Below, one piece after another: positions 7,923-54,973 of a DNA stretch of 64,000 bases. Origin of the DNA: a virus. The notes under the pieces were generated by a model. It was not told where the DNA came from. It searched no databases and saw nothing but the letters and a program-made list of their open reading frames with translations. The first letter of the stretch is position 1. Every line of letters begins with the position of its first letter. Where the stretch lies: IMG/VR virus record IMGVR_UViG_3300025000_001646, positions 20,487 through 84,486 of that record. The stretch is one strand, 5' to 3'. Position numbers and translations under genes: made by a program.

Positions 7923-7993
7923 GTATATTATAAAATATTTTGTAAAAAAGTAAATAAAAAGTGTAAAAAAAAGTGATTTTCTTTAAAAAAAAC

Positions 7994-8373: not shown

Positions 8374-8385
8374 CCTTATATTTTT

Positions 8386-8880: not shown

Positions 8881-8892
8881 CATTATTTATTT

Positions 8893-33348: not shown

Positions 33349-34380
33349 ATGAAAATTATAAATAAGTCATACAGACCAAAGGTTTTATTCCATTATTCAA
33401 ATGAGTTTCACTATTGCTGATTTGACGATTTAATGATTGAGTTAAGAAAAGATTTTGAGGTTACTAGTTTTTTTGATAGAAGAGTAAACGAAAATGAATA
33501 TATTTGAATATTAAGATGTGTAAATCCAGATATTATAATTGATGTAGAATGGGACAGGAGAACAATGGAAAGTGAATTTAAAGACAAAATAAGAATACAA
33601 TTGCCACATTGACTAGTATCTAAACATTATATGTATTGAGTGATTTGGAATAATTTTAGATATAATAAAACAATCACTTCTTGACCAGAAATTACTAAAC
33701 AATTTATTGAAAGAGGATTGATTCCAAAAGAAAATTTGCTTGAATTAGGTTACCCGAAAATTGACAGACTACATAATGGATTTTATGACAAAGAAAAAAT
33801 AAAAGAAAATTTATGAATAAAAAATAATCTTAAAACTATTCTATACGCTCCTACATTCAAAGAATTTTCTTCTTTCAATTATTTTATTGAAGAAGATGAG
33901 GAGTATTTTTATAAAAGAATAAATTATTTAGCGAATAATTACAACATTATAATTAAGTTACACGCTTGAACACCAAACGAAAAATTTAAGCCGTATTTAT
34001 TTGGAGAAAATGTTTACTTAATTTTTGATTATGATATTAGACCTTACCAATACTTAGCTGATATATGTATTTCTGATTTGTCTTCCGTAATATTTGAGTT
34101 TGCTTCACAAAACAAGCCAGTAATACTCCTTAGACCTTATGAAGATAACATTATAGACAAAAATTGAATAGAATGGACTATGAAAGACATAGGGACTAAT
34201 TGTAAAAATTTAGAAGATTTAGAGAAGGCAGTTATGGAATATGATAAAAACCCAGAAAAAGACAGTGAAATCAGAGAAAAGTATAACAAACAAATATTTA
34301 AAAACTTATGATTTTCCAGTAAAATTCTAGCAAATAATATTCTAAAATTATATGAATCTAATAGTGCTTTCAGCTGGTAG
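33349..34380 (+). CDS. CDP-glycerol glycerophosphotransferase-like enzyme
   Basis: 343 aa with many UGA-Gly. QLPHGLVSKHYMYG, ELGYPKIDRLHNGFYDKEKI, ILYAPTFKEF, IIIKLHAGTPNEK and ISDLSSVIFEFASQNKP are the ordered motifs of TagB/TagF-type transferases, which move a phospho-alcohol from a CDP carrier onto a polymer. Given the phosphonate genes downstream, the transferred group may be a hydroxyethylphosphonate; that is inference. It is transcribed away from the lysis genes and overlaps the next gene by 29 bases. Confidence 0.8.
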
Positions 34381-35002
34381 ATGAAGTAGGCTTAGACCAC
34401 TAACAGACAACAAACCAAAGGTACTATTGAAAATAAACTGAAAGACTATATTAGAAATGCTAAAAGAAAATGTTTGAGCCGAAAAAAATGTTGTAGTGAC
34501 TTGATATCTTTGAGAAAAAATTGAAGAAAATAAGGTTACAAATGATTTATGGTATGAAAATGGTTCGTCTAGTAGTCTTTATTTGGCTAGAAACTACTTA
34601 AAATGAGATACAATGATAGTTTATGGCGATATGATTATAGACAAAGAAGACTTTGAAGAAATGAAAAATCAAGATTGTATATTGGTAGATGACAAAGAAA
34701 AATGAGATGATTATGATGAATATGTAAACAAAGACAGTCTTTGACTTAAATATAGAAGCGAGATTTGAGAATGTGAAAGATTTTTGTGAGCAATACATCT
34801 AAAAGAAGAAACTGCTAAAAAACTTTATAAATATTTTAAACCTTGAATGTTAAATTATAAGATTTGATTAGCCGACTTAATATGAGATTTTTTTGATGCT
34901 AACAATATAGACTTCAAAAAAGTTAAAGCTAAAAATAAATGGTTTGAATTAGACAAAATTCAAGATTATATAAATGCAAAAATATATTTTAATGATTATT
35001 AA
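34352..35002 (+). CDS. Cytidylyltransferase-like sugar/phosphocholine nucleotidyltransferase
   Basis: 216 aa. MNLIVLSAGRGSRLRPLTDN with KPKVLLKINGK is the LicC/RmlA-type signature; MIVYGDMII supplies the metal-binding D. The short length and the missing C-terminal sugar domain resemble LicC-like cytidylyltransferases, which activate phosphocholine or phosphonates as CDP/CMP forms. Its place between PEP mutase and a CDP-alcohol transferase suggests activation of the phosphonate. UGA-Gly throughout. Confidence 0.75.
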
Positions 35003-35005
35003 AAA

Positions 35006-35884
35006 ATGAAACTTCCTAAAATAAATTTTCAAGAAAAACTTAACTTAAAATGACAAGTTATAATCACTACATTTGATACTGGATTAAAAGACAATGAAAT
35101 TATAATGATTTCAGAAGAGCCTAGCAAAGAAGAATTAGACAAAATAGTTTTTCAAACAATTACTGACACTATTTATGCTATTGGTGGTGGATCAGCTATT
35201 GATTGAGCTAAATACCTATGCAATAAAGAAGGTAAAAAATTAATAGCAATACCAACAACTTTTTCTGGATCGGCTTCCTCTAGTCACTTAGTATTGAAAG
35301 AAAACTGAAAGAAAAAAGGTTATTCTGGAAATGAATACATACCAGATGAAGTAATAATCATCAACGATTTGCTTTACACTTTACCAGCTAAAACTTTCTT
35401 TTATTCTCTTATAGATTGTTTTGCACATTCGCAAGAGGCTGTTAGAAGCAATAAGAATAATTTTATTATAGAATTAATTTCTGAAAATATTATAGGAACT
35501 TTTGGTAATGTTTTACAAATGAAATTTGAGGACTTTATAAAACTTGATGAAAATAAAATGGAAGAAGAAAAAGCATTATTAGTTAGAGATTTTGGAAAAG
35601 TTTTATTAGTTATTTCTCTTTATGCTAGTTATATATTAAGTGAAGCTGGGACTAATTTACCACATGCAATTTCTTATGCTATTAGCAATTATGGACTTTC
35701 ACATTGAGAAGCTATAGCAATAGTTTATGGACTTAATGACAGAAGAATGAAAGACCTTTGAATAGAATTTGATTTAGAAAAAATGACAGATGAAATTTTA
35801 TTAGATAGACACCATTTAGACAATTTTCCTTGAGAAATTTCTAAGGATTTAATATTTAATACACTTAAAAAACTTTATGAATAG
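35006..35884 (+). CDS. Iron-type alcohol dehydrogenase, likely phosphonoacetaldehyde reductase
   Basis: 292 aa. IYAIGGGSAIDGAKYL (NAD binding), AIPTTFSGSASSSH, then SLIDCFAHSQEA (D and H metal ligands), GTNLPHAIS and LSHGEAIAI (two more His) define the group III alcohol dehydrogenase family. The N-terminal part is shorter than usual (family about 370-390 aa). Members next to PEP mutase and Ppd reduce phosphonoacetaldehyde to 2-hydroxyethylphosphonate. UGA-Gly at key positions such as DGAK. Confidence 0.78.
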
Positions 35885-36656
35885 GATTATTGGTTGCCAT
35901 AATGCAATGACGGCTATATTATGAGAAGAGGCTTGATTTGATATGCTTTGGGCTTCTTGATTCGAGATTTGCACTTCTAAATGAATACCAGACAAGGATA
36001 TACTTACTCAAACAGAATTTCTTGATGCTTTTAGAGAAATTAAAAACTCAGTTAAAATACCAGTAATTATAGATGCTGATACTGGTGGGACTTTAGAACA
36101 ACTTAAAAGAATGATTACTTTTTATAATCAAATTTGAATAGATTGAATATGTATAGAAGACAAGAAATTTCCAAAGACTAATAGTTTTATTGAAAAATGA
36201 CAAGAACTTGAAGAAATAGATTTGTTTTGTAAAAAAATAAAGTTATTGAGCAAAGAATTTTCTGGAATGATTTTTGCTAGAATAGAAGCACTTATTGCTG
36301 GAAAATGAGAAGATGAAGCTATAAAAAGAGCTAAGGAATATATAAAAGCTGGTGCTAATGTTATTTTAATTCATTCAAAAAGCGAAACTCCAGATGAAAT
36401 AGTCTCTTTTTGCAGAAGGTATAAGAAGGAATGACTTACTATTCCTATTGCAATTATTCCAACAAAATATACAAGTTTTACTGAAAATTACATAAAAAAA
36501 TACCCTCAAATTAAATATGTTATTTATGCTAATCAATGAATAAGATCTTCAATAAAAGCAATAAAAGAAACTTATAAAAAGATTTTAAAAGATTGAGGCG
36601 TAAATAATTTAAATATTTCTACTCTTGATGACTGTTTTAAAATACAATGATTATAG
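35877..36656 (+). CDS. pepM: Phosphoenolpyruvate mutase
   Basis: 259 aa. GEEAGFDMLWASGFEICTSK then GIPDKD, PVIIDADTGG, ICIEDKKFPKTNSF and FARIEALIAGKG are the PEP mutase signatures; EDKxFPKxNSF is the motif that separates mutases from isocitrate lyase and methylisocitrate lyase relatives. It converts PEP to phosphonopyruvate, the committed C-P bond step of nearly all phosphonate pathways. It overlaps the alcohol dehydrogenase by 8 bases and the next gene by 10. UGA-Gly throughout. Confidence 0.88.
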
Positions 36657-36952
36657 GCGTTCCATATTCTGGCTGTGATTTTAAAGACGCTATTTATTTT
36701 CCTAGAGAAAATAGTGCTTTAGGTTATGCTATTTGAGCTAGACTAGCTTGAAAGGATGTTACTGTATTTATGCAAAACTCTTGATTATGGCATATATGAG
36801 ATTTATTTTCCTCTTTCTTAATTCCTAGCAAACTTAAATGAATAAAATTTATTATTAACAACAGAAAAGAGCCAGAGCATCACAAGCATTCTTTTGAAAA
36901 TATAAATAATCTCTTAAAAATTTATGGAATTGAAAATGCCGAACTTAACTAG
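36647..36952 (+). CDS. Phosphonopyruvate decarboxylase, alpha-like subunit
   Basis: 101 aa. IIGVPYSGCDFKDAI, RENSALGYAIGARLAGKDV and FMQNSGLWHIGDLFSSF match the N-terminal (pyrimidine-binding) half of Ppd and sulfopyruvate decarboxylase; the catalytic Glu is the E of REN. It lacks the TPP pyrophosphate motif, which is in the next gene, so the enzyme is split as in ComDE. It decarboxylates phosphonopyruvate to phosphonoacetaldehyde, pulling the unfavourable mutase reaction. Confidence 0.82.
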
Positions 36953-37403
36953 AAGCACAGCTATATTGTCTATTGCAAAATTAAAATATGATGAACCATT
37001 AGTTATAGCATCAACTTGATTAAATTCAAAAGCTCTTTATTCTTTAGGTCATCGAGACAGATTTTTATATAATAGATGAGCATATTGAGAAACTTGAATA
37101 ATAGCATTAGGTATTGCCGAGAATACTAATAAAGAAGTAGTAGTAATTGATTGAGACGGTAGTTTTCTGGCTTGATTTGCTAATTACCCGATTATATTAG
37201 AAAGGAAGCCTAAAAATTTGCATTATTATATTTTAAGAAACTGAAAAACACAGACTACTTGATGACAACCTCTTATACAATTTCCTAAATTAGACAAATA
37301 CTTTACTATTTTTGATATAGACGAAGACGACAGAAAGCCTCAAAACATAGAAATTACTATTGAAGAAAATGTAAAATCTTTTATGGAATATTTAAAATCT
37401 TAA
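36936..37403 (+). CDS. Phosphonopyruvate decarboxylase, beta-like subunit (TPP binding)
   Basis: 155 aa. IASTGLNSKALYSLGHRD, NRGAYGETGIIALGIAEN and VVVIDGDGSFLAGFANY contain the GDG...N thiamine-pyrophosphate motif. It overlaps the alpha subunit by 17 bases in another frame, so both should be made together. The fifth-member position of the phosphonate operon and the shared UGA use support a single acquisition and long residence in this code. Confidence 0.82.
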
Positions 37404-37412
37404 TTTTATTTT

Positions 37413-37850
37413 ATGATTAACGGTGTAAAAATTATTGACGTTAATAGATTCTGGGATGACAGATGATTTTTTGCAGAGGTATGGAGGAAGTCTCAACAAT
37501 GAGAAATGGCTCAAATGTCTTTCACTAAAACTTACCCTTGAGTTGTCAAGGCTTTTCACTACCACGAAAAACAAGATGATTTATGGTTTTGTGTAGAAGG
37601 AAATCTAAGAGTAGTTTTAAAAGACCTTAGAGAAGACTCTCCTACTTTTAATGAAGTGCAAACTATTTATATTGGTGAAAAATCTCAAGCAGTTTATATT
37701 CCTAAAATGGTAGCTCACGGTTATAAAGTTATGGGAGAAAAGCCAGCTAAACTTATTTATTTGACAACACAAGAATATGATGTAAAAAATCCAGACGAGA
37801 AAAGAATACCTTATGACGAATTTTATGATTGGAAAACAGTTTTTAAGTAA
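37413..37850 (+). CDS. rmlC: dTDP-4-dehydrorhamnose 3,5-epimerase
   Basis: 145 aa cupin. VNRFWDDRGFFAEVWRKS, VVKAFHYHEKQDDLWFCVEG (His and metal-free cupin barrel), VYIPKMVAHGYKV and PYDEFYDWK fit RmlC, although it is shorter than the usual 180 aa. Step three of dTDP-L-rhamnose synthesis. Four UGA-Gly in the first third, none after. Confidence 0.8.
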
Positions 37851-37899: not shown

Positions 37900-37974
37900 G
37901 CGGGGATGAGGTAAAGTCTAGCCTGAATCGCTTCAACCGATTAAGTAGGGGATAGTCTCCCCTTCTCCGCTCCA
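37900..37974 (+). tRNA. tRNA-Gly with anticodon UCA, reads UGA
   Basis: Acceptor GCGGGGA (37900-37906) with TCTCCGC (37964-37970), discriminator U (37971) and encoded CCA. D stem AGG/CCT, anticodon stem AATCG/CGATT with loop CTTCAAC, anticodon TCA at 37933-37935, T stem AGGGG/CCCCT. The G1-C72, C2-G71 and U73 elements are those bacterial GlyRS uses, and C35 is kept, so charging with Gly is expected. The D loop lacks GG and the T loop (ATAGTCT) lacks UUC, so the elbow is atypical. Under standard numbering this is the decoder of the phage's UGA-Gly codons. Confidence 0.88.
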
Positions 37975-37989: not shown

Positions 37990-38310
37990 ATGGGATCATC
38001 AAAGCACGGATTAAAGCCAAATCAAATATCAGTAAAAAGAAAAAGCACTAAAGTAAAAGGTGTTTCTCGTTTAAATCATTGGTCTACTATTTCAAAAATG
38101 AATATTGAAGATAAGAAAGTAAATGGTTATGTAACTAATATAACTAATATAAAAGGAAATACATTTTGGTGGTATTCTAAAGGAAGAAAAACTTGTTTAG
38201 ACACAGGACTTAAATGTGATCCAGATGGTTATAATAGATGGAATACTTATGAAAATCACCTAATAAGAAAAAAGAGATTTAAAAATCGTGTCAGAAAAAA
38301 TACTATTTAA
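37990..38310 (+). CDS. Hypothetical basic protein, 106 aa
   Basis: Very basic (KHGLKPNQISVKRKS, RKKRFKNRVRKN) with a central beta-like region (YVTNITNIKGNTFWWYSKGR). It may bind nucleic acid. It follows the tRNA by 15 bases and has no UGA although its glycines are several. Confidence 0.55.
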   Translation: MGSSKHGLKPNQISVKRKSTKVKGVSRLNHWSTISKMNIEDKKVNGYVTNITNIKGNTFWWYSKGRKTCLDTGLKCDPDGYNRWNTYENHLIRKKRFKNRVRKNTI

Positions 38311-38322
38311 TTTTATATTTTT

Positions 38323-38613
38323 ATGGCTCAACACATTGGAATGATATTGGAAGATGAAGATGGAAAATTAATTAAAGACTCTAAATTAAATTTTCAAGAT
38401 GTTTTAGATAAATGTGATGTTAGTGATAATGAATGGTTAGGCACAATAGATGAATATGGAAATACTGTATTTAATAATATTCAAATACCTATAATAATTA
38501 ATGAATTAAAAGAATTACCAGTAGAAGAAGAAAATTATACATTAATTAATAAATTTATAAAATTTTTAGAGCAAGCAGAGGATCACGAATATATAAAATT
38601 TATTGGAGATTAA
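38323..38613 (+). CDS. Hypothetical acidic protein, 96 aa
   Basis: MAQHIGMILEDEDGKLIKDS begins an acidic protein with a C-terminal helix (EQAEDHEYIKFIGD). Leader TTTAATTTTATATTTTTATG. No UGA, no recognised family. Confidence 0.5.
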   Translation: MAQHIGMILEDEDGKLIKDSKLNFQDVLDKCDVSDNEWLGTIDEYGNTVFNNIQIPIIINELKELPVEEENYTLINKFIKFLEQAEDHEYIKFIGD

Positions 38614-38625
38614 CTTTTAATTTAT

Positions 38626-38871
38626 ATGATTATAGAAATACCAGATATAAAAGACCGTAATGGAAAAACAGTAAGAATGGGAGATGTTATATATTTTCCA
38701 GAACAAAGTCTTCACAATACATTGGTTAGATGGGATGAGGAAGAATTTTGTTTAGTACCTTTTAATTATAAATATTATTATTATAAAGACCAAGAAACTG
38801 GAAAAATGTGTCCTTTTGAAATAGTAGGAAATATAAAAGAAGAACCAAATTTACAATATGGAAGAGATTAA
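38626..38871 (+). CDS. Hypothetical protein, 81 aa (YopX-like opening)
   Basis: EIPDIKDRNGKTVRMGDVIYF resembles the DxxGxxVx(xG)D core of YopX/small SH3-like phage proteins that recur as KDxxGxxIxxGD. The rest is acidic with aromatic residues. No UGA. Confidence 0.5.
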   Translation: MIIEIPDIKDRNGKTVRMGDVIYFPEQSLHNTLVRWDEEEFCLVPFNYKYYYYKDQETGKMCPFEIVGNIKEEPNLQYGRD

Positions 38872-38890
38872 TATTTAATTTTATTTTACC

Positions 38891-39076
38891 ATGCCAATAA
38901 TGCCTTGTGTAAGCGAAAAAAAGAAAGGTTTTAAATATTGAGAAACTTGAAATTGTTATACCTATGAAGAAGGTAATAAAACTAGTGAAGAAAATGCTAG
39001 AGAACAAGCAATCAAGCAATGACAAGCTATTGAGATTAGCAGACTTAAAAAATATAAAATAACCATTAAAAAATAA
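38891..39076 (+). CDS. Small conserved-type phage protein (MPIMPC family)
   Basis: 61 aa. MPIMPCVSEKKKGFKYGETG then NCYTYEEGNKTSEENA and IKQGQAIEIS. The MP-x-x-P-C, YGxxGxCY and QGxAI pattern occurs in short phage proteins near packaging and head genes. Three of its glycines are UGA. Confidence 0.65.
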
Positions 39077-39325
39077 ATGAAAAAATTTATAATAATATTA
39101 AAGGATTTATGAATGGGATTATTGATTGCTGGTGTAATTATTTTAGCTTTATTAATTCCTAGCTTTTTGTTAATGATTTCTTGGAATTTAGGATTGGCAA
39201 CTTTATTCACTAGCTTACCTAAAATGAATTTAATACAAGCAATTTTTATTGGAGGATTTTTCCATATTTTGACTTATAAATCAACTATTACAAAAACTGA
39301 AATTAAAGATATATTTAAAAAATAA
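39077..39325 (+). CDS. Membrane protein, 82 aa
   Basis: ATG directly after the TAA of the previous gene. One UGA-Gly (LKDLGMGLLIAGV), then two or three hydrophobic spans. The stop overlaps the next start (TAATG). Possibly a second holin-like or envelope protein. Confidence 0.6.
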
Positions 39326-39627
39326 TGATTAATAATGAAATTTATAACGAATTTTTAAATGATAATAACTTATATGAATTTAAAGATAAAACAGGTAAAA
39401 AATTTACTTTAGATTTAAAAAATATTCATATAATAGAAAAAGTAAATAGTGGAATAGGAGATGAAGGATATGATGATAATAATTATTCTCTATATATAGT
39501 TAATAAAAAGAATAAAAACAATCCTTTATTTCCAAATTTCTTAAAAGATGAAAAAGAAAGAGATAGAATATTCGATGAAATAATAAATACAAAACTTAAT
39601 CAAGAAGTAAAACAATTTAAAAAATAA
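39325..39627 (+). CDS. Hypothetical acidic protein, 100 aa
   Basis: Acidic, Asn-rich protein with FTLDLKNIHIIEKVNSGIG near the middle. Start coupled to the membrane gene by TAATG. No UGA; family not recognised. Confidence 0.5.
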   Translation: MINNEIYNEFLNDNNLYEFKDKTGKKFTLDLKNIHIIEKVNSGIGDEGYDDNNYSLYIVNKKNKNNPLFPNFLKDEKERDRIFDEIINTKLNQEVKQFKK

Positions 39628-39640
39628 TTTTATATATTTT

Positions 39641-39793
39641 ATGAATACAGACATTGAAAACTGATTCATTCCAGAACAAACAAAAACAGAAACCAATCCA
39701 GATGGTGAGAGAATAGAAGATTATATTGTAAATCAATTGGCCAGAATAGAGCATCTATTAATAACATTATTAGAGCAATGAAAAAAATCTTAG
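39641..39793 (+). CDS. Hypothetical protein, 50 aa
   Basis: Two in-frame UGA (IENGFIPE and LLEQGKKS). The helix IEDYIVNQLARIEHLLITL precedes the end. It overlaps rmlD by 16 bases. Family not recognised. Confidence 0.5.
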
Positions 39794-40593
39794 TTTTTGG
39801 TGCTAATGGGATGCTAGGGAAAGACTTGGTAAAAATAGATTGATTTAAAATTTACCCAGACTATAAAACAGACATTACTAATTGATTACAAGTATTTATA
39901 AAGACTTTATTGGTTAGACCAGATTACATAATTAATTGTGCCGCTTATACTGATGTTGATTGAGCCGAGAATGATGACAATGTTTGAAAATGCTGGAGTG
40001 TTAATTCTTGTAGTAAATTGGTCGGTATATGTAAACTTTTTAATACACCTCTTGTAGCATTTTCTACTGATTATGTTTTTAATTGAAAGAAAAAAGAAGG
40101 CTATTCAGAAGACGAAAAACTTCATAATAATAGACCTCTTGAAATATATTGAATGAGTAAATGGATAATGGAATTTAACATATTAAAAAATCTCAAGAAA
40201 TATTATATTATTAGGATTTCATCTCTTTTCGGGAAAAATGGTAAGAATTTCGTAGACTTAATCTTAAATTATGAGAAAGAAATAAACGTGCTTTGAAATA
40301 ATAAAATGAAACCTACTTATACAGTAGATTTAGCAGAGAATGTTAAAAAACTTTTACAACTAGAATATCCTTATTGAACATACCACTTCACAAACGAATG
40401 AGCTTGCTCTTGGTATGAATTTGCTAAAGAAATAAATAAATACAGAACACAACCAATCAAAATAAACAAGGTAGATGAATTTAAAAGACCAGCCGAGAGA
40501 CCTCAATATTCTGAATTGATTAATAATTCACCTTTAAAAATGAGGCACTGGAAAGAATCTCTCAAAGATTATATTTCTAACATTAAAAAGTAA
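39778..40593 (+). CDS. rmlD: dTDP-4-dehydrorhamnose reductase
   Basis: 271 aa. MKKILVFGANGMLGKDL, INCAAYTDVDGAEND, STDYVFNG and IYGMSKWIMEF (catalytic YxxxK) are RmlD hallmarks, with the ending PAERPQYSEL also typical. It completes dTDP-L-rhamnose with RmlA, RmlB and RmlC. UGA-Gly are abundant, including the G of VFNG and IYG. Confidence 0.88.
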
Positions 40594-41211
40594 ATGACAG
40601 AAGAATTTATTCAGTCTATTAATTGGCACAAAGGCGACCCTATAATAATTAATCCCCTAAAAGATGATCCAGCTATTCCTAATAATCAAGAAGGCTCTTT
40701 TTGTGTTGATTTAGGTTGTGGTAAGAATAAAAGAGAAGGATTTATTGGAGTAGATCAAGCTCCAGACGGAGTAGGCGATATTCAAATCAGACTTGATATA
40801 TTAAACGACAAATTACCTTTCGAAGATAGTTCTGTTGACTGTCTTTTTGCATCACATATAGTCGAACATATAGGCGAAGGCAAAATGATTGCTTTTATGG
40901 ATGAGTGTTATAGGGTATTAAAACCTTATGGACTTTTTGAAATTATAGCTCCAGTTTACAATTCTAGTGATGCTTATAGACACCCAGATCATAAGAGATT
41001 TATTCATCCAGAACTTTGGGGATTTTGGGATCCAGCTAACTGTCAAGAAGACAGAGAATGTTATGGAGTAAAAGCTAAATTCACTCTCGCTATTAATGAA
41101 GAAGAAAGAATATTTGGAGACAGTGAAGAGCCAATGATACTTAGAAAATGTCAGCCTATGAACTTTGTATATAAGAATGGCAATTTTGTTACTCTAGTAG
41201 CTATTAAATAA
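40594..41211 (+). CDS. SAM-dependent methyltransferase
   Basis: 205 aa. FCVDLGCGKNKREGFIGVDQ (motif I), IRLDILNDKLPFEDSSVDCL, SHIVEHIG and ECYRVLKPYGLFEII are the standard Methyltransf_11 set. It starts right after the rmlD stop. It has about 17 glycine codons and no UGA, unlike rmlD, so its codon history differs. Substrate unknown, possibly the glycan. Confidence 0.82.
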   Translation: MTEEFIQSINWHKGDPIIINPLKDDPAIPNNQEGSFCVDLGCGKNKREGFIGVDQAPDGVGDIQIRLDILNDKLPFEDSSVDCLFASHIVEHIGEGKMIAFMDECYRVLKPYGLFEIIAPVYNSSDAYRHPDHKRFIHPELWGFWDPANCQEDRECYGVKAKFTLAINEEERIFGDSEEPMILRKCQPMNFVYKNGNFVTLVAIK

Positions 41212-41223
41212 TTTTACATTAAA

Positions 41224-41757
41224 ATGAAATTTCTAACTCCTAAAAATAAACCAAAAGAAGTAAAAAGAATCAAACCAAATAGCAAGAATTATGTAATGAA
41301 TATTACTGGAGAAATAAGTGAAAATACCTTTGTAGATTGGAGATTTGCAGAAAAAGACAACGATTTAGTTTTCAATATAAATTCTTATGGTGGAGATTTA
41401 ACAACAGCAATGAATATATATGAAAGAATGAGAAAAGAAAAAAGAAAAAAAATATGCAAATCTTTTGGAGGAGTAGAGTCTGCCGCTATAAATATTTTTG
41501 TAGCAGGAGATGAAAGAATAGCAGGAATAAACGATGTTTTTATGATTCATAATGGAAAAGTAAATAACAAGACAATAGATGAATTACAATTTTTTATGGA
41601 TTATGCAAATAGATGTTCTGTAATAATAAGCAAAAGACTTTCTGACATAAGTATTAGACCTTTTGAGTTTTGGATGGACTTATTCACTAATGGAAAGAAT
41701 AACTACTTCACAGGACAGGAGATGTACGATTTAGGTGTAGTTACAGAGCTTATATAG
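41224..41757 (+). CDS. ClpP-like serine protease, possible head maturation protease
   Basis: 177 aa. NINSYGGDLTTAMNIYERM, GGVESAAINIFVAGDERIAG and FMIHNGK follow the ClpP order: oxyanion GG, nucleophile Ser (the S of ESAA) and catalytic His. Phage ClpP/S49-like proteins usually mature capsid proteins, but no capsid gene is adjacent. No UGA. Stop TAG followed by a 109-base AT-rich gap without a gene. Confidence 0.75.
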   Translation: MKFLTPKNKPKEVKRIKPNSKNYVMNITGEISENTFVDWRFAEKDNDLVFNINSYGGDLTTAMNIYERMRKEKRKKICKSFGGVESAAINIFVAGDERIAGINDVFMIHNGKVNNKTIDELQFFMDYANRCSVIISKRLSDISIRPFEFWMDLFTNGKNNYFTGQEMYDLGVVTELI

Positions 41758-41866
41758 ACAAGAATAAAAATTATGACGTAATAAGAAGTTGGTAGTACAA
41801 AGTATTAAAACAGTATTTTTGCATTAATCAAGTTTTTTTTAATAAATATTAACTTTTTTTAATAAA

Positions 41867-42064
41867 ATGAATAAATTTGAAACAATAAGATATAAAATAT
41901 ATTATTGTTTTTTAAAAAAATCAAGAATATGGACTTATTTTAGAGAAGAATTTTTAAATAATTTATTATTTGAATTAGAAAGATTTGACATTGATAAAGA
42001 AAGTATTATTAAAAAATATAAAGATGAATTAATTAAAATAAGAAAAATAAACAAAAATTTATAA
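41867..42064 (+). CDS. Hypothetical protein, 65 aa
   Basis: Basic and aromatic helical protein. Leader TTAACTTTTTTTAATAAAATG. It contains no glycine, so it is silent on the code. Family not recognised. Confidence 0.45.
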   Translation: MNKFETIRYKIYYCFLKKSRIWTYFREEFLNNLLFELERFDIDKESIIKKYKDELIKIRKINKNL

Positions 42065-42081
42065 TATGATTTTTTAATAAA

Positions 42082-42390
42082 ATGACGAAAAAATCATTCA
42101 AAAATCTAATGGAAAAATTCATTGAGATTAAAGAAAATGTAGAAAATGTAAATAAAGCATTGAAAGTATTCGAGCCAGACTTTAATTACCTTTGCTTTAG
42201 TAAATACGAATATATATTTTTAGACGCTCTAAAAGAAGCTATGAATGATGAGTATGACTGGATTGATTATTTCATATACGAATTAAATTTCGGGAAAAAA
42301 GCTAAAAAAGATTCTGTTACAGAAAAAGGCAAGAATATTCCTATTAAGACAATAGACAACCTTTATAATTTAATCACTAAAAATAAATGA
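42082..42390 (+). CDS. Hypothetical protein, 102 aa
   Basis: Helical acidic protein (MEKFIEIKENVENVNKAL). The frame meets UGA at 42388-42390 in an ATGA overlap with the next gene; if UGA is Gly, two residues are added and TAA 42394-42396 ends it, so the outcome barely changes. No internal UGA. Confidence 0.5.
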   Translation: MTKKSFKNLMEKFIEIKENVENVNKALKVFEPDFNYLCFSKYEYIFLDALKEAMNDEYDWIDYFIYELNFGKKAKKDSVTEKGKNIPIKTIDNLYNLITKNK

Positions 42391-43091
42391 AAATAAAATT
42401 TGCTTCTCTGGTAATTCTTTCATTCAATCGTAGAAAGATGATGGAAAGATCACTTAATTCTTTATTCGCTAATACTACATTTCCCTATGAATTAATCGTT
42501 GTAGATGACGGTAGTCACGATGATGATACTGTAGACTACTTAATGAGACTTTATAGACTTGGAAAGATTTCAACTCTTATTCTTAATGGAGGAAAGAATA
42601 TGGGCGTAGGTGTAGGAATAAATAGAGGATTTGATATTGCTCACGGAGACATTGTCTTGAAATTAGATGCCGACCTTGAATATGCTCCTGGTTGGTTAGA
42701 GAAGACAGTTAAGATTATGGAGACATTTCCAGAAATAGGGGTAATGGGATTATTTAAATACTTCCACGAACCAGTAGACCATAGAAAAATGTTTATTAGA
42801 AGAGAAGAAAGAGACGGAGTAGCTGTAGAAGTACATCAAGATTTCGTTGGCAGTGCTATGGTAATTACTAAAGAACTTTACAATAAGAAAGGAAAGTTTG
42901 GAGAATTTAGTGCGGCTTTTGCTGAAGACACTATTTGGAAAATGGCAAGAAAATCAGAAGGCTACTGGTTAGCTCTTCCAGAAGAAGACTTGGTTTATAA
43001 CTTTGGCTTTGGTAGGATTACTTCAATTCTAGTTAATAACGATGGTACTGTTAGGGACATCGCTCAAGAACCTTTAATCTTTAATAAATAA
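42387..43091 (+). CDS. GT2 glycosyltransferase
   Basis: 234 aa. FASLVILSFNRRKMMERSLN, ELIVVDDGSHDDD, GGKNMGVGVGINRGFDIA and DIVLKLDADLEYAPGW (DxD) define a GT-A family 2 enzyme; FVGSAMVITKELY continues the fold. About 20 glycines and no UGA, in contrast to the GT2 at 6737, pointing to a more recent arrival. Confidence 0.85.
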   Translation: MKIKFASLVILSFNRRKMMERSLNSLFANTTFPYELIVVDDGSHDDDTVDYLMRLYRLGKISTLILNGGKNMGVGVGINRGFDIAHGDIVLKLDADLEYAPGWLEKTVKIMETFPEIGVMGLFKYFHEPVDHRKMFIRREERDGVAVEVHQDFVGSAMVITKELYNKKGKFGEFSAAFAEDTIWKMARKSEGYWLALPEEDLVYNFGFGRITSILVNNDGTVRDIAQEPLIFNK

Positions 43092-43094
43092 ATT

Positions 43095-43397
43095 ATGTTA
43101 TATTATAATTTCGTTTTAATCGGTTGTGAAAACATAATAGAGATTGATATTTATAACTTTTTAAAAGAAAATAATTTTGAAGTTGTTAAAACAAAATTTG
43201 AAAGTACAATGGAAGAAAATAAACAAAACTATTTTATAGAATTTAAAGGAGAAAATGCTATACGAGAAAATTTCAAAAATTTAAAAACTAACGCAAGATT
43301 TATTATGGATTTTGAAGGTAAGGTAGAGGAAGAAGAAAAAGAAGGATGGATTATTAAAGGTCAAAAAATGTTATTCAGAGAATTAATTAATCAATAA
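43095..43397 (+). CDS. Hypothetical protein, 100 aa
   Basis: Alpha/beta, acidic protein (IIEIDIYNFLKENNFEVVK). Starts 4 bases after the GT2 stop. No UGA. No family recognised. Confidence 0.5.
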   Translation: MLYYNFVLIGCENIIEIDIYNFLKENNFEVVKTKFESTMEENKQNYFIEFKGENAIRENFKNLKTNARFIMDFEGKVEEEEKEGWIIKGQKMLFRELINQ

Positions 43398-43398: not shown

Positions 43399-43830
43399 AT
43401 GAGAATTGCAGTAATATGAGCATTTTCTACTTGAAAAACTACTTATGTTGAAAACTATAAAGGAAAAGAATTAAAAGCTATTAATCTTGAAAGATGATTT
43501 AATTCTCAAGAAGAAATATTTAATAATCAAATAAAGTTTGAAAAAGAACATAAAGACTTTATTACAGACAATTGATTATTTACAATACTGGCATACACCA
43601 AGAAATTTAGACCAGAATTATTTGAAGAACAATTAAGAGAAACTAAAGAATATTTAAAAAATAATCCTTATGACAAAATAATTCTATTAGAACCTTTGAA
43701 TAAAATAGAAGATGATTGATTTAGATTTACAGACAAAGAGTTACAGTTAGAAATACATAATATAATATTAAATATACTTAATGAAAATATGGTTTGCTAC
43801 AGATCGTTCAACAGGTTGTTATTATGTTAG
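43399..43830 (+). CDS. P-loop kinase-like protein
   Basis: 143 aa. MRIAVIGAFSTGKTTYVENY is a Walker A motif with UGA at both its first and fourth glycines... (GAFSTGKT), proving Gly decoding. A later IILLEPLNKI may be Walker B. The small size suggests a nucleoside- or sugar-kinase-like enzyme. It overlaps the next gene by 50 bases in another frame. Confidence 0.65.
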
Positions 43831-44938
43831 AGAAAAGATTATTGAAAAATATATTAATAGAGAATGAATACACGAAGTTAGAATAGACGACCAAATAAGT
43901 TTTAAGATTAACGACAATAAAGAGATTATAGATGTTATGGCTGATAGTCTTGATTGGTGTGATGTAATGGTATTAGCAAGAACTTATAAACCTCTACAAG
44001 ACAAATCAATAAAGAGTAGGCATAAAATACCTATTCTTCTTTTAAGAAAGGCTAAAGAACTTTGAAAGAAAGTAGTCTATGAAATTGATGATGATTTTAA
44101 AACGCTCTTTGAAGGCAAGGCTCTTCACAATATGTCATCAGTAGAAATTTATAATCGCTGGGACAAGAAAGAACAGATTGATTGCTTTTATAACGAATCT
44201 GATTTAATCACTACCACTACAGAAGAACTTAGACAAAAACTTATTCCAGAAAAAACAGTCGTCTTGCCTAACTGTATTGACTTTGAAGAGTATGGAGATT
44301 TTAATTTCAATAAGAGATGAGACAAAATTAAAATACTAGTGTCTGGCGGGATTACACACCTAAGAGATTGGCAGATTATTTTAGACCCGCTCAAACAACT
44401 TTCTAAAGAATTTCCTATTGAGATTATATTTTATGGTATAGACAGTAATGTTTTGGCTACTACTTTCAAAGATTATTTCCAGAAAATGGACAGAAACAAT
44501 CCTCTTAATCAATGGATGTTTTCTCTTTTTGACTTCATAAATAAGTCTCAAGAGCTGGGCAATATTACCTTTGTGAATTGGGTAGAAGTTAAAGACTACC
44601 AAAAAACACTCAAGTCTTTAGGAGCGAACATAGGACTCATACCATTAGAGGGAACAGAATTTGATGAGAGTAAATCTGACATTAAGTTTAGAGAATACTC
44701 TGCCTGTTCTATTCCAGTTATAGCCAGCAAGGTTATTCCATACTCTAATAATATTACAGAAGAGACAGGAATACTTTGCAAGAATAAGTTTTTTAACTGG
44801 TATAATGCTATTAAGAAACTTATAGAGAATGAAGACTTGGCTAAAAGACTTGCTCTTAATGCTTATAATGACACGCTTAAAAATAGAGACATAAGCAAAA
44901 ATTATAAGCATTGGATTGATGCCTATAAGAATTTATAA
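43781..44938 (+). CDS. Glycosyltransferase, GT4-like
   Basis: 385 aa. KVVYEIDDDFKTLFEGKALH in the first half, then VLPNCIDFEEYG, ILVSGGITHLRDW and IGLIPLEGTEFDESKSDIKF with REYSACSIPVIASKVIPYSNNITEETG, the GT-B C-terminal donor site. The N-terminus resembles O-antigen or rhamnan transferases with an IDDD motif. Only three UGA, all in the first half, so the C-terminal 210 codons are UGA-free. Confidence 0.8.
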
Positions 44939-47495: not shown

Positions 47496-48464
47496 ATGTC
47501 ACAACATATTGGAAGAGAACAGTGGATAGGGGTTGGTCTTGAAGATAGTGCTGGTTCTGGTGGAAGTATAGACAAATACATTCCTCTGGTTTCTGGCTCT
47601 TTTATGACAATGACCGATATTCTTCCAGACGAAGCTGCTCGTGGTATTCGCCATAAAGTAGGTTGAGCTGTATTAGCAAGAACTCGTGGAGAAGGTAGTG
47701 TAGAAATGCAATTAGACGTTGAAAACTCTCCTTATTTCTTATACCCAGTAATGGGAAGTATTTCTTCAATTACTAAGGCTGGAGAAACGGCAGTTTATAC
47801 TCACACAATTTCAAGAGAAAATACAGCTACTCCAAAAACTTTGGTAGCAAAAAGAGGTGAAGGTGTAGATGTTAGAGAATACGCTAATATTGTAGTTTCT
47901 TCTGCTAATCTTACAGTTTCAGACTGATTTGTTGGATTGTCTTGTGATTTACTTTCTAAAGCTGGTACATCAGAGACAGGTTCTCCAACTTATACCACCG
48001 AAACTTTACTTTCTCTAAAAGATTGTAGTATTCAATTAGGAACTGATTTAACTGCTGCTGCATTAGCTGCCGCTACTAAGGTAACAGAATTAGAACTTAA
48101 TATAGTAAACAACGCAGAAGCTCACTATATGAGTGGGTCAAGTGATGTAGATACTATTACTTATGGAACTCAAGAAATTACTGGTAGTTTTGTAAAACTT
48201 TTTGAAAGTACAACTGAAAGAGCTGCTTATGAAGCATTGACAAAAAGAGCAATGATCATTACAATTACTGGAGAATCTATTGGTAATTCTTCAACAGAAA
48301 CAATTCAAATAAATATTGCTAAAATGCACCTTTCTGGACATCCAATTGAAATGGGATTAGATGACATTATGGCAGAGACTTCAGAATTTACTTGTGAATA
48401 TGACCCTACAACTGCTAAAGATGTTCAAATAGTAATTACCAATCAAACTTCTTCTTACGCTTAG
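47496..48464 (+). CDS. Major tail tube protein
   Basis: 322 aa beta-rich protein: IGREQWIGVGLEDSAGSGG, DEAARGIRHKVGGAVLARTR and GSVEMQLDVENSPYFLYPVM, with Thr-rich linkers and FTCEYDPTTAKDVQIVI at the end. The position before the chaperone and tape measure genes fits the tail tube. It has only two UGA among about 25 glycines, so codon use is biased to GGN. Confidence 0.7.
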
Positions 48465-48941: not shown

Positions 48942-50547
48942 AGACCTAACATTAAGAATAAATGCAGAAGATAATGCAACAGAAGTTTTAAATAAAACAA
49001 GAAAATGAGTAGATTGAATTGTTAAAGCTGGAAAAATTTTGGCTGCATCTTGGGCAGCAAAAAAAGTTTTTGAATGAACTATTTGAGTAGCAATGGATTT
49101 TGAAAAACAAATGAAAAATGTGTCTACTATGATGGATTTAACAACAGAGGCTTGAAAAAAAACATTTGATTCAGTAAGAAGTTGATTATTAGATATTGCT
49201 CAAAATGTACCAATATCTATTGATTCTTTAAGTGACTCTCTTTATAATATGGTATCTTCTTGATACCAGTGAAAAGAAGCACTAGAAATGGTTAATACTG
49301 CTGCAAAATTAGCAACAGCTGGAGCAACAGATGCTTGAACAGCAGCTTATGCCTTAACGGCTTTTATAAAAGGTTATTGAGACGCTTCTGTTTCAGCTAA
49401 AGAAGCTGCTGATTTATTATATAATACCAATGTTTATGGTATTACTACTTTTGAAGAATTGGCAGTTAGTATTTCTGGTGCAGTTCCTTCTGCGAATATG
49501 TTATGAGTTAGTCAATTAGAATTAGCAGCTACTACTGCTACTTTAGTAGGAAAAACTGGTAATGCTGCAGAAGTTTCAACTCAATTAATGTGAGCTTTTA
49601 ATGCTATGTTAAAACCAAATAAAGCATTAATATCATTAATTCAAAGTCTATGATATGAAAGTGCAGAAGCAATGATAAAGGCAAATTGATTAAAATGAAC
49701 ATTGGATTTATTAAAAGAATGAGCCAATAAATCTAATGTAGAATTAAAGGACATTACTTCTAATGTTAGGGCTGCAAATTGATTAATACCATTAATGACA
49801 ACACTTTCTTGAGATCTTACTAATAATTTAAACAATATGTGAAACGCTTCTTGAATAGTAGATGAAGCATTTAAAAAGCAAATGGAGGCAAGTAGTAATT
49901 TATGGGATGTAACAAAAAATAGATTAGCTGTTGCTGGAATAGAATTATGAACATTGGTATTGCCTTTATTATCAATGGCGATACAAGCATTAAATTTTAT
50001 TATACAAAATTGAATAAAAATGTTTTCTGAATTTTGGGATACAACAAAAAAAATATGAGAATGGTTATTAAAATCATTTTTATGAATTTGGGAAACTATT
50101 AAAAATGCTGTTTCAGACGCATTTACATATATTTATAATCAGATAAAAGATTCTCCGATAGTTTCTTTTATTCAATGAATAATTGAAAAAGTTCAATGAT
50201 TATTGGAAAAAATATGATTAGCAAAAAAACAATCTCAAGAACTTTGAGAAGTTTGAATTTGAAATTATAGTAGCAAACAAACAAGTATTTCTATGCCAAA
50301 AAAGAGAGCTATTGGTTGACCTGTCTCTTCTGGAAGTCAATATTTAGTAGGAGAAAGATGACCAGAGCTTTTTACTCCTTCTACTTCTGGAATGATTACT
50401 CCAAACAATCAACTTTGAGGCGGTGGAGTAGTAATTAATCTTAACAATCCAGTAGTAAGAGATGAATGAGACATTGACGCTTTCACAAATAAAATTATAA
50501 AAGCTCTTAGATGAGTAAATTTAAACAATAAACTTTCTTCATTCTAG
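48931..50547 (+). CDS. Tail tape measure protein
   Basis: 538 aa. LRINAEDNATEVLNKTRKG, then FEKQMKNVSTMMDLTTEAG and ISIDSLSDSLYNMVSSGYQG are the conserved TMP core (TIGR01760-type); later hydrophobic spans and the ending VGERGPELFTPS and GGGVVINLNNP are typical. My hand count gives about 35 UGA and 15 GGN glycine codons. Its modest length suggests a tail of roughly 80 nm by the usual rule, which is inference. Confidence 0.88.
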
Positions 50548-52490
50548 TGATTACTTATACTATATGATGACAAGATTTAAGTGACGAGGTAGTTAGAGGC
50601 TCGCTTAAAATATTAGAAAAGGCGACAGATTCTGTAAACATCTGTCGTTTTGATATGTTGGTAAATTGAACGACTGGAAATAAACCGCTTAGATGACAAA
50701 AGGTTCTTGTAGTAAGTGATTGATCAAAGATTTTTAATGGATTTATTGAGATGACTACTGAATGAGAATTGACTAAATGAGATTGGCTTCAATACGAGGT
50801 TGAGTGTATAGATTACACCAAAGCAATGCAACACAGATTAGTCGTTGAATCTTTCACAGGACAAACAGTCAAGACAATAGTAGATACTCTAATTAACGAT
50901 TACATAGGCACTGGCTTTGGAATTACTACTACAAATGTAGTTACTTGACCGACTATTGACTCAATTCAATTCAATTATTTAACAGTCCAGAGATGTCTCC
51001 AAAAAATAGCTCAAAATGCTCAAATGGAATGGTATATAGACTACGAAAAAGATGTGCACATGTTTAATCGAAGCGATGAGTCAGCTCCAGAATCTTTGAC
51101 AGACTCTTCTGATAACTTTTATAATCTTACCCTTGAAGTAGATACTTCACAGCTTAGAAATTCGGTAGTAGTTAGATGATCAACTTACCCTTCAAATAAT
51201 TTCTCTCAAACAATTAAGGCAGATGGTACAGCTCGGGAATGGTTACTTGCAAGAAAGCCTAAAGCTTGGGTAAGTTTAACTGTTGATTGAGTTTATAAAG
51301 ATGTTGGTGTAGACCCTCTTATGGAAGAAACGGCTGATGTCGTTATAGACAGAGTTTATTCAGAAGAATCTGGAAGCCTAGTAGACAGAACGACATTGTT
51401 TAAAAGAGAATGATGAAGTTGTACTTTTTTTTCGGCTGATGATGATTATATATATATAGGGGCTAGAAATAGCTGGAATACTATGGTTTGGGATTTTGCT
51501 ACTCCCGCCAGTGCAGATGTTGTTATGGAAATACAATATTCAAGTCTTACTGAATGACAATGGAATAATTTAGTAGTATTTACAGATTGAACAAATTGAA
51601 TGACACAAGATTGAACGCTTACTTTTATTCGACCAGAGGATTGGGGAAAGGGTAGTCAAATAGATGCCACTACTGAAATTGATCCAGCTAATACAACGAA
51701 TTATTACTATTTAAGAATAAAAAGAACAGCTAATATTTTGGTAACAGCTCCTGCCATAGCAGAACTTCTTATGGACAGGATTTTCGAGTATATGTTTAAC
51801 TTTCAAGAAAAATTTGTTAGATGTTCGGCGGCTACAACAACGCCAATTGCTTGAATATTACTCGTTCCTACTTATAGATACGAAGTGCCTATTATAGCTA
51901 AATCTCAAAACAATCAATCTATTGAAGCTATGAAGGCAATAGAGTGATGAGACGGTCTCTATGAACATATTATAGTAGATGAGAGTATTACCACTAAAGA
52001 CGAAGCAAAGGCGAGGGCGGCGGCTGAAATAGCTGATTATGCCAATCCTATTGTCAATGGTAACTTTCAAACAAGAACAGGATTACTTCAATCTGGAAGC
52101 AAATTCGTTCCTTGACAGATTTTAACTATAAGTCTTAATTCAAGAGGGCTTACTGGCGACTACAATATACAAGAGATGACTACTACCACGGCTGATGAAA
52201 GCGAATTTTATTACGATATTCGTTTCGGCGGTAGGCTTTTAAATGTCTTCAATTATTTTTTGAATAACATAAGCAAGGAAATAGTAATGAAAGAAAATGA
52301 AGAGTTATTGTCTATTGAAGTTGTAGACGAGACTGTAACTATTACCGAGACTATAACAAAAGCTACTCCAGAGACAGTAATAGAAAGTGTTTTAATCACT
52401 GAAAATGCTAGTGCCTCTACTTTTACGCCTCCTTATACTTGGTGAGATGATGCTGACGAGGGTAGATGGGGGATTTTCGAGTGGTCTTAA
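50547..52490 (+). CDS. Tail hub / baseplate protein
   Basis: 647 aa from a GTG whose G is the last base of the upstream TAG (TAGTG). TYTIGGQDLSDEVVRGSLKI opens a hub domain; NYLTVQRCLQKIAQNAQMEW with WYIDYEKDVHMF is the gp27/gpD-type signature; a beta sandwich in the middle (YIYIGARNSWNTMVW) resembles a carbohydrate-binding module. The C-terminal part returns to the hub fold. UGA-Gly throughout. Confidence 0.72.
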
Positions 52491-52544: not shown

Positions 52545-53105
52545 ATGGAAAATATAACAGAAAATGTCGGGATTAAATGAATACAAATTTTCTCTTGATA
52601 TGACATTACTAAACCTAATGCTCAAGAAATTGAAAACGAAATTATAGAAGCTAAAAAAGAAAAAATAGAATGGAGTGATTGGAAAAGTATAATCAGTAAA
52701 TTCGCTGATTGTTGCAAAACAAGAGAAATAGAATACCATAATCTAATCACGACTGTTGGCAGGTCGGTTATAGCTCAAAGATTAGTCGGCACTAATACCT
52801 ATACCCTTAATCTTGATTATGGAGCTTTGGGAACAGGCACGACTGCTCCCGCTAATGCTGATACTATTCTTGAGACAGAGCAATACAGAAATACAGTAGC
52901 TTCTCAAACTAATTCAAATAATATAGCTTACCTTACTTGGTTTTATTCTTCTACTGAAACTAATGGTAACTTTAGAGAATTTGGAAATGTTATTGACGGT
53001 TGAGCAGGAGCAAACACAGGGCAATTATTTACACACGTAGCCGTTGCTTGGAACAAGAGTGCTTTGGAATCGCTTACCGTAGATTGTTCCTATGAAATTT
53101 TATAA
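52545..53105 (+). CDS. Tail-associated protein, 186 aa
   Basis: ENITENVGIKGIQIFSGYDI begins a short helical part, then a beta-rich domain (YTLNLDYGALGTGTTAPANA, FREFGNVIDGGAGANTGQ) like those found at fibre bases or in phage head-decoration proteins. Four UGA-Gly. Confidence 0.55.
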
Positions 53106-53122: not shown

Positions 53123-54973
53123 ATGGCAGTTTTAACTAGTGCAGTTGTAGCAGGTCAAACAGCTACGGCGGTACAATATAATAATCTAAGAAATGATGCT
53201 TTAACAGCTGGTCATATTAGTCTTCAGACTATTACTGGAGCAACTAAAACAGTAGTAGCAAACGAATGATACATTTCTCAAAATGATAGTGATAGAATAG
53301 TTTATACTTTACCTACAACAGCTAGTGTTGGAGATGTTTTTATAGTTACTGGAAAAGGTACTGCTGGCTGGAAAATTGCTCAAAATGCTTCTCAAATTAT
53401 TTATTTTTGAAAGGTTTCTACTACTACTTGAGCTAGTTGATACATTCAATCTACTTGAAACAATGATTCAGTTACATTAGTTTGCACTACTACTAATAAT
53501 GGTTGGACTGTAACAAATTCTATTTGAGAAATAACTTTAGATTCTGGTTGAACAAATAATGCTATTGACTGAATTATATGATGAGACGGAAGCGATGGTG
53601 CATTGTCAATCGGTGCTGGAGCAACTACAACTCTTAATACAAATCAAGTTTATAATTATAGTTCTATAGACATAAACGCAACAGGAACACTTGCTTTCAC
53701 AGGTGCTAATGGTGCGGCTCTTATAAACTGTAGTGGAGACGCTACAATCGCAGGAACAATAGAACTTCGCAATCTAGTAACAACTGCTTTCTCTGCCTAT
53801 ACCTCTAACAAGGATAGTCTGATGAGCGGAAGTGCTTATACTGCTGTAACTTATAATGCTGGTGGTGCAGGTGGTACAGCTGGTGGTGTTGCAGGTAATG
53901 GTGGAACAGGTGGAACATCTACTACTGCTTCTGGTACTCCTGGTACTGGTGGTGCAGGAGGAACTTCTGGTAGCAAAAATGGTGGAAATGGAGAAGGTGG
54001 TAATTCTACTACTGGAGGAGGAGGAGGCGGTGGTGGATACGGAGATGGAAATGGAACTGCTGGAGCTACAACTGCCAATACTAATGGAGGTGCTGGAGGT
54101 GCTGCTGATGCAACATCTACTGGTCCTGGTGCTGGAGGAGGCGGTGGTGGAGGTGGATTGACAACTGGAAACGGAGGTGCGGGTGGAGCTGGAGGAGCTA
54201 CTACTAGTGTAAGTGGTGGAGAAAACGGTGGAATAGGTGGTAACGGTGGTGCTTCTGGTGCTAGTGGTGGAAATGGAGGAAATGGTGGACAAGGAGGTGC
54301 TTGCACTAGAACTGTTTCTGGTATAGGAGGTAACGGTGGAGCTGCTTATGCTACTGGTGGTACTGGTGGTGCAGGTGGTGGAGCTAGTGATGATGGACAA
54401 GGTGCAGCAGGAGGAGTAGGAGGTAATTCTTCTCATGGAACTGGTGGTGTTGGCGGAACTGGAGGTAATACCGTTAATGGTAATATTGCTGGTGTTGGTG
54501 GAGCTGGAGGAAATGGAAGAATAGGAGGTGCTGGTGGAACTGGAGGTAACCCTGGTTCTTCTGGAGCTAATGGTGCAGCTGGTGGTGCAGGCGGTAATGG
54601 AACATCTGGATCAACTTGTCTAGCAATGTATGTAAAAGGAGATCTAACCATATCTGCAACTGTAACAGCTAGTGGTGGTAATGGAGGTAAAGGTGGAAAT
54701 GGTGGAAATGGATTTGGTGCTGGAGCTGGTGGGGCTGGAGGTGCTGGCGGAAGTGGTGGAGATGGAGCAGATATAATAATACTATGCAAAGGAACACTTA
54801 CTAATACAGCTACTATAACTAATACAGGTGGTAATGGTGGAACAGGAGGAACAGGAGGTAATGGTGGAGATACTAACTCTACAACTATTGGAAAATCAAA
54901 TGGACAAAATGGAACCAATGGAAGACAAGGTCGTGATGGTCGTAAAATAGTTGCTTCTATTACTAACCTTTAA
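53123..54973 (+). CDS. Glycine-rich tail fibre-like protein
   Basis: 616 aa. Residues 1-160 are a beta-rich head domain (VVAGQTATAVQYNNLRNDAL) with ten UGA-Gly. Residues about 245-600 are a low-complexity Gly-rich run of GGAGG, GGNGG, GGTGG units, like PGRS or polyglycine-II helical fibre domains, interrupted by a globular part (CLAMYVKGDLTISATVTASG). The Gly-rich part has no UGA at all. It may form a polyglycine sandwich that binds glycan at a fibre tip. Confidence 0.72.

What the first reader, a model, noticed from the sequence alone, without database searches (positions are those of the whole stretch)
53123..54973. Glycine-rich fibre domain avoids UGA while its own N-terminus uses it
The first 160 codons have ten UGA-Gly. 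The following 456 codons, about 200 of them Gly, have none. If UGA were freely used dozens would be expected. Either the domain came from a standard-code source, or runs of Gly avoid UGA because the tRNA-Gly(UCA) would limit elongation or release factors would compete.
Basis: seen in the sequence. Interest (0 to 1): 0.7.

Follow-up and report, generated by a model that had tools for sequence, protein, structure and literature searches.

The report
Phage fibre stitched across genetic codes
A phage that reads the stop codon UGA as glycine carries a tail-fibre gene whose front part is full of such codons and whose glycine-rich rear part has none; the rear part is a swappable module seen only in phages that use the normal code, so the codon boundary most likely marks a seam between two codes rather than a dislike of UGA in glycine runs.

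Summary
In ORF 53123-54973 (UGA=Gly), 10 of 21 Gly codons up to codon 160 are UGA. Chance is excluded.

The seam falls between codons 154 and 156, about 90 codons before the Gly-rich stretch begins. Gracilibacteria do not avoid UGA in Gly runs (45% inside, 45% outside). A second tail fibre of the same phage has the same switch (23/39, then 0/107, then a terminal UGA followed by UAA), although its UGA-free part is only about 9% Gly. So glycine density is not the cause.

Forty-six relatives of the neighbouring gene mark the same tail cassette in other viral contigs. None has UGA in frame in that gene, and their own fibre slots appear standard-coded. In them the Gly-rich core "GDGSDG..." is joined to several unrelated N-termini. 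The best match (59% identity) starts at our residue 154, the last UGA codon.

Best explanation: the rear module came from a standard-code phage by tail-fibre module exchange and has not yet accumulated UGA. Donor and host are unknown. The phage's replication genes also lack UGA-Gly: possible code switching.

The parts
53123..53227 (+). N-terminal anchor of the fibre (residues 1-35)
   Evidence: Residues 5-27 are 57% identical to the N-terminus of the fibre in the same slot of L225, where the body is different
53228..53584 (+). Inserted domain and linker (residues 36-154), carrying all ten UGA-Gly codons; the last is codon 154 at 53582-53584
   Evidence: Codon count; domain 36-139 is 40-47% identical to domains in standard-code phages; absent from the short-anchored syntenic fibres
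53585..54970 (+). UGA-free C-terminal module (residues 155-616): beta-strand start, long Gly-rich region, further strands
   Evidence: 0 UGA of 168 Gly; D155 G156 D158 G159 invariant in four aligned fibres; residues 154-219 59% identical to L248; predicted strands at 160-215, 499-517, 550-568 and 608-612
53861..54610 (+). Gly-dense stretch inside the module (about residues 247-496)
   Evidence: Sequence; no confident structure here (pLDDT below 50)
52545..53105 (+). Upstream tail gene (186 aa, phrog_5417-like), marker of the cassette used to find relatives
50547..52490 (+). Baseplate-hub-like gene, 21 UGA of 44 Gly
   Evidence: Weak phrog_177 match; same order in L089, L137, L102
48931..50547 (+). 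Tape measure protein, 35 UGA of 50 Gly
   Evidence: Pfam and PHROGs; same order in L089, L137, L102
54979..55287 (+). Next gene; uses UGA again (4 of 5 Gly), so the UGA-free stretch ends with the fibre gene
37900..37974 (+). Phage tRNA with anticodon UCA, probably tRNA-Gly(UCA), with an unusual T-loop
   Evidence: ARAGORN; G1-C72/C2-G71/G3-C70 and U73 are tRNA-Gly-like features (sequence; identity rules from general knowledge); not reported by Rfam at its gathering score

Best explanation
The gene is a chimeric phage tail fibre. Its N-terminal part (anchor, inserted domain, linker) has long been in a genome where UGA means Gly, and about half of its Gly codons have become UGA. Its C-terminal part, from the conserved motif GDGSDG onward, is an exchangeable tail-fibre module taken over more recently from a phage using the standard code, where an in-frame UGA would truncate the protein. 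It arrived with only GGN glycine codons and has not had time to accumulate UGA. Shown: the codon switch, its coincidence with the module boundary, the module's presence on other N-termini in contigs that read as standard-coded, the absence of avoidance in Gly runs of recoded bacteria, and the same switch in a second fibre. Inferred: that exchange with a standard-code phage is the historical event, its recency, and that the module binds the receptor.
For: (1) Sharp seam at 154|156, 10/19 against 0/168, before the Gly-dense run. (2) Homology to fibres of standard-code phage contigs begins at residue 153-155: L102, L089, L137; L248 is 59% identical over 154-219 with an unrelated N-terminus. (3) In 46 related loci with no in-frame UGA in the neighbouring gene, the slot after that gene is modular: the core starts at residue 27-32, 53, 112 or 128 after different N-termini, and our anchor sits on another body in L225. 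(4) Non-Gly codon usage differs across the seam in the direction of the second fibre's UGA-free part, within-amino-acid permutation p=1e-4. (5) Second fibre, record 3484-8814: 23/39 UGA before codon 526, 0/107 from 531 to 1775, about 9% Gly; it ends CTA-TGA-TAA with an ATGA overlap to a UGA-free downstream ORF; parts of its C-part have standard-code phage homologues at 50-64% identity. (6) UGA share in Gly-dense windows of Gracilibacteria 265/587, outside 900/2005.
Against: No donor with high DNA identity was found, so recency is inferred. The C-part is as AT-rich at third positions as the N-part, so the codon-usage contrast is modest and rests largely on Ile and Leu codons; some UGA-rich genes have equally ATA-rich Ile usage. 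In the second fibre the seam lies inside a shared domain (residues 471-667), not at its edge. No relative using UGA=Gly was found, so loss of UGA by selection within the recoded lineage is not formally excluded.
Confidence: 0.8

Rival explanations
1. Selection against UGA in Gly runs: many consecutive UGA codons would exhaust tRNA-Gly(UCA) or let a release factor compete, so dense Gly domains are kept UGA-free.
For: UGA share is slightly lower at clustered Gly in this phage's UGA-rich genes (79/166 against 349/572, p=0.002). Host EF-Tu uses fewer UGA than GyrA in one genome (17/41 against 56/67).
Against: No avoidance in Gly-dense windows of 29 Gracilibacteria genes (0.45 against 0.45), including long mixed UGA/GGN runs. 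The UGA-free stretch begins before the Gly-dense part. The second fibre shows the same switch in a non-Gly-rich region. The C-part has ATA-rich Ile codons, opposite to the major head protein's usage.
Confidence: 0.07
2. Translational selection on abundant proteins: UGA is a non-optimal Gly codon and abundant structural proteins avoid it.
For: The major head protein has 0/26 UGA with ATT/ATC-rich Ile and CGT-rich Arg codons; window 47496-48464 has 2/28.
Against: It acts on whole genes, while here one mRNA holds both regimes. The fibre C-part uses ATA for 13 of 18 Ile, the opposite of the head protein.
Confidence: 0.04
3. Founder effect in a repeat expansion: the domain grew by duplication from a short seed that happened to lack UGA, without any import.
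For: The domain is repetitive at the protein level (sequence), so codon choice could be copied.
Against: GGT and GGA are evenly mixed (79 and 73 in codons 241-616). The ordered start of the module (154-219) is 59% identical to L248 and the overall domain layout is shared with L102, so the domain predates this phage. It does not explain the second fibre.
Confidence: 0.05

Closest known systems
Tail-fibre modular mosaicism (exchange of receptor-binding modules between phages; general knowledge)
   Same: N-terminal attachment part kept, C-terminal part exchanged at a conserved joint; same slot in a tail cassette
   Different: Here the exchange appears to cross a genetic-code boundary, so the seam is visible as a codon switch inside one gene
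Code-25 phages of Absconditabacteria and Gracilibacteria (Liu et al. 2023, PMC10746230; RSA-ATP1, PMC13059738)
   Same: UGA=Gly inside structural genes; RSA-ATP1 also encodes tRNA-Gly(UCA); code-11-compatible phages with closely spaced different stops at gene ends were described
   Different: The passages read do not describe a within-gene seam between UGA-rich and UGA-free modules. The host of this phage is not identified here
Stop-codon-recoding phages of standard-code hosts (Borges et al. 2022, as cited in PMC10746230; the paper itself was not available)
   Same: Late genes recoded, replication genes free of the recoded codon, phage suppressor tRNA
   Different: UGA=Gly here, against UAG=Gln or UGA=Trp in the cases cited there; the host code is unknown

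Membership tests
Modular tail fibre | Lies in a tail gene cassette | tested here: met
   Follows tape measure, hub-like and phrog_5417-like genes; same order in L089, L137, L102
Modular tail fibre | Same C-terminal module on different N-termini in other phages | tested here: met
   Core starts at residue 27-32, 53, 112 or 128 in related fibres; our anchor is on another body in L225
Modular tail fibre | Is part of the virion and binds the host surface | not testable with these tools
   Needs virion proteomics or binding assays
Phage using genetic code 25 (UGA=Gly) | In-frame UGA at conserved Gly positions | tested here: met
   7 of 9 UGA in the phage GroEL fall on conserved Gly
Phage using genetic code 25 (UGA=Gly) | Long ORFs only when UGA is sense | tested here: met
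   Window 45-64 kb: coverage by ORFs of 150 codons or more is 0.17 under code 11 and 0.82 under code 25; not so for the replication block (0.42 and 0.43)
Phage using genetic code 25 (UGA=Gly) | Host is a code-25 bacterium | tested here: inconclusive
   No relative of the fibre in 353 genomes of the class apart from a probable contaminant; the only head-protein matches, in one genome, are 31% and 27% identical without UGA; no spacer search was made
Code-switching phage | Replication genes free of the recoded codon and using it as stop | tested here: met
   6 of 331 Gly codons UGA in the code-25 ORF calls, all in doubtful ORFs or past a likely UGA stop; ATGA stop/start overlaps at 9925, 28744 and 42387
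Code-switching phage | Host uses the standard code | not testable with these tools
   Host unknown
Named Gly-rich fibre family | Match to a Pfam or PHROG model or to a solved structure | tested here: not met
   No Pfam or PHROG family; only a chance-level PDB match

The most novel reading that the evidence does not exclude
The phage runs two translation regimes: UGA is stop while replication genes are expressed and becomes Gly for late genes through its own tRNA-Gly(UCA), a UGA-to-Gly code switch. The replication block shares this genome's codon usage and gene-start motif yet has essentially no UGA-Gly and some UGA stops, which points to constraint rather than recent import. The UGA-free fibre modules would then be recent arrivals from phages of the same standard-code host.
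Probability: 0.3. Interest if true: 0.75.

Novelty: new variant of a known kind. Interest (0 to 1): 0.55.

Why it matters
If right, a reassigned stop codon is a one-way stamp that dates and locates recombination: imported pieces start with none of the codon and gain it with time. It would show that a different genetic code does not stop phages from taking host-range modules from standard-code phages, since a module free of UGA works in both codes. Passing a module the other way would be blocked once UGA has entered. The same stamp can be looked for in any recoded phage, without a close donor in hand.

Tried and rejected
Gly-run avoidance: rejected on host data, the second fibre and the position of the seam. 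A general 5'-to-3' decline of UGA in long genes: rejected, since the 803-aa gene at record 30-2441 has the reverse trend (2/12 then 16/21) and the tape measure has no significant split. Misassembly: unlikely, as the record ends overlap and a second IMG/VR contig spans the fibre and the record junction, essentially identical. UGA as Trp: rejected by the GroEL alignment. The only Gly-rich match in the Gracilibacteria class (L012) lies in 61% GC DNA unlike these hosts and is probably contamination. Direct scans with the Gly-rich part found only the same virus; a degenerate Gly-run pattern and the neighbouring gene's alignment worked instead. Hub, terminase and DnaB scans gave no useful relatives. 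A fold search was not run because the model is poor (mean pLDDT 40.6).

Full report
The gene and the observation. ORF 53123-54973, read with UGA as Gly, encodes 616 residues. UGA is at codons 49, 96, 103, 106, 112, 135, 143, 150, 153 and 154. Codons 1-160 have 21 Gly, 10 of them UGA; codons 161-616 have 166 Gly, none of them UGA. The best split, 10/19 against 0/168 between codons 154 and 156, has a Fisher value of 8e-12 and was not reached in 300 shuffles. UGA means Gly here: in the phage GroEL, 7 of 9 UGA positions fall on Gly conserved in solved GroELs. The record is an 84,486-base virus with a 127-base end overlap; a second IMG/VR contig, essentially identical where they overlap, carries the same fibre and spans the record ends. 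The phage carries a tRNA with anticodon UCA and Gly-like acceptor features.

Where the seam lies. The UGA-free part starts at codon 155, but the Gly-dense run starts near codon 247. An AlphaFold model from four sequences is poor overall (mean pLDDT 40.6), but its confident strands begin at residue 160 and its low-confidence N-terminal stretch ends at 157. The seam therefore looks like a domain edge rather than an effect of Gly density.

Test in recoded bacteria. A UGA-containing EF-Tu pattern found five Gracilibacteria genomes, and a Gly-run pattern was then searched in 353 genomes of the class. Hits commonly mix UGA and GGN, and the reading frames were checked. In 29 genes with Gly-dense windows the UGA share is 265/587 inside and 900/2005 outside. 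Limits: genes with fewer than two UGA were left out of that count, which biases both shares upward; some loci overlap, so a few genes may be counted twice; and the class may include standard-code members. Within this phage's UGA-rich genes, clustered Gly are 48% UGA against 61% for isolated Gly, a mild effect.

A second fibre with the same switch. The gene at record 3484-8814 (outside the window) encodes a 1776-residue tail fibre with a C-terminal S74 chaperone domain. It has 23 UGA of 39 Gly up to codon 525, none of 107 from 531 to 1775, and a final UGA directly before UAA. That UGA overlaps the ATG of a small UGA-free ORF at 8808-9047 (sequence), as if UGA had been the original stop. Its UGA-free part is about 9% Gly. 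Parts of it are 50-64% identical to standard-code marine phages. Its seam lies inside a domain (471-667) shared with standard-code phages, which would fit homologous recombination within that domain.

Relatives of the fibre. A degenerate Gly-run pattern in IMG/VR led to L102, whose 514-residue fibre aligns from residue 129 to 600 at 43%, with the convincing part beginning at GDGRDGDL = our 154-160. L102, L089 and L137 also share the order tape measure, hub-like, 52545-like, Gly-rich fibre. The four fibres align from the motif DGSDG, with D155, G156, D158 and G159 invariant. A scan with the 52545-like protein gave 47 loci, one of them the same virus. In the other 46 the matched stretch of the neighbouring gene has no in-frame UGA. 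The next ORF, found in most of them and called with UGA read as sense, has none either, except six ORFs with one UGA each; these are calls that start at an unlikely codon or may run past a UGA stop, and they were not examined one by one. The Gly-rich core occurs after different N-termini, starting at residue 27-32, 53, 112 or 128. L248 matches residues 154-219 at 59%, and our anchor sits on a different body in L225. The homology boundary and the last UGA codon thus agree to about one codon.

Codon usage across the seam. A codon classifier trained on the second fibre's UGA-free part against UGA-rich genes, Gly left out, scores our C-part higher than our N-part; shuffling within amino acids gives p=1e-4. 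Ile shifts to ATA in both fibres (4/14 to 13/18, p=0.03; 13/35 to 64/87, p=3e-4), but a few UGA-rich genes are equally ATA-rich, so this is supporting evidence only. The major head protein also lacks UGA (0/26) but has ATT/ATC-rich Ile codons, as expected from translational selection; the fibre C-part shows the opposite.

Conclusion. The best explanation is a chimeric fibre: a resident N-terminal part that has accumulated UGA, joined to a module from a standard-code phage. The recency and direction of transfer are inferred, because no close donor was found.

A wider pattern in this phage. Window 7.5-32.3 kb (methyltransferase, DnaB-like helicase, Sak-like annealing protein, exonuclease) has 6 UGA among 331 Gly codons in code-25 ORF calls. 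All six lie in a doubtful 63-residue ORF or beyond a likely UGA stop, whereas UGA-rich genes have 319 of 592. Several genes there end in UGA with ATGA overlaps. Yet codon usage is close to that of the UGA-rich genes (divergence 0.0065, split-half 0.0037, other AT-rich phages 0.0105 or more), and a gene-start motif TAAYHTT is shared (28/37 and 26/49 genes against 4% background). Part of that motif excess may come from the TAA stop of the preceding gene. This looks like constraint rather than recent import and fits a code switch, but the host is unknown, and no release factor gene of the RF-1 family was found in the record.

Literature. UGA=Gly phages of Absconditabacteria and Gracilibacteria and code-11-compatible phages are described in PMC10746230. 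A patescibacterial phage with tRNA-Gly(UCA) is described in PMC13059738. Late-gene recoding with suppressor tRNAs is cited there and in PMC10746230; the original paper was not held.

Noticed in passing
7518-32288 (and parts of 37990-43397): Replication-type genes with essentially no UGA-Gly, some ending in UGA with ATGA stop/start overlaps, although codon usage and gene-start motif match the UGA-rich genes: possible UGA-to-Gly code switching
   Followed up: partly
L084:3484-8814 (record coordinates, outside the window): Second tail fibre with the same UGA switch, ending CTA-TGA-TAA with an ATGA overlap to a UGA-free ORF at 8808-9047
   Followed up: yes
L084:9040-9636: UGA-free minus-strand ORF beside the second fibre whose start resembles HNH/NUMOD4 homing endonucleases by eye; not searched
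   Followed up: no
upstream of many genes, e.g. 8386, 13809, 21742: Motif TTTAACCTTA or TAAYHTT shortly before the start codon, in place of a clear Shine-Dalgarno sequence; role unknown
   Followed up: partly
27307-27373: tRNA gene called Cys with anticodon ACA, 67 nt, unusual anticodon; Rfam tRNA 49 bits
   Followed up: no
37900-37974: tRNA(UCA) with a non-canonical T-loop, between a UGA-rich and a UGA-free block
   Followed up: partly
L084:13969-14913; 47496-48464: Major head protein (0/26 UGA) and another tail-module gene (2/28) are UGA-poor inside the UGA-rich half; the head protein's codon usage suggests translational selection
   Followed up: partly
22155-22490: Tandem repeats of about 15 bp in the Gly-rich ORF 21742-22842 of the UGA-free block (record 42641-42976)
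   Followed up: no
950-7525, 33349-37850: Clusters of UGA-rich genes that look like sugar-nucleotide and glycosyltransferase genes by eye, unusual in number for a phage; of this kind only 39778-40593 (RmlD) and 43781-44938 (glycosyltransferase) were searched
   Followed up: no
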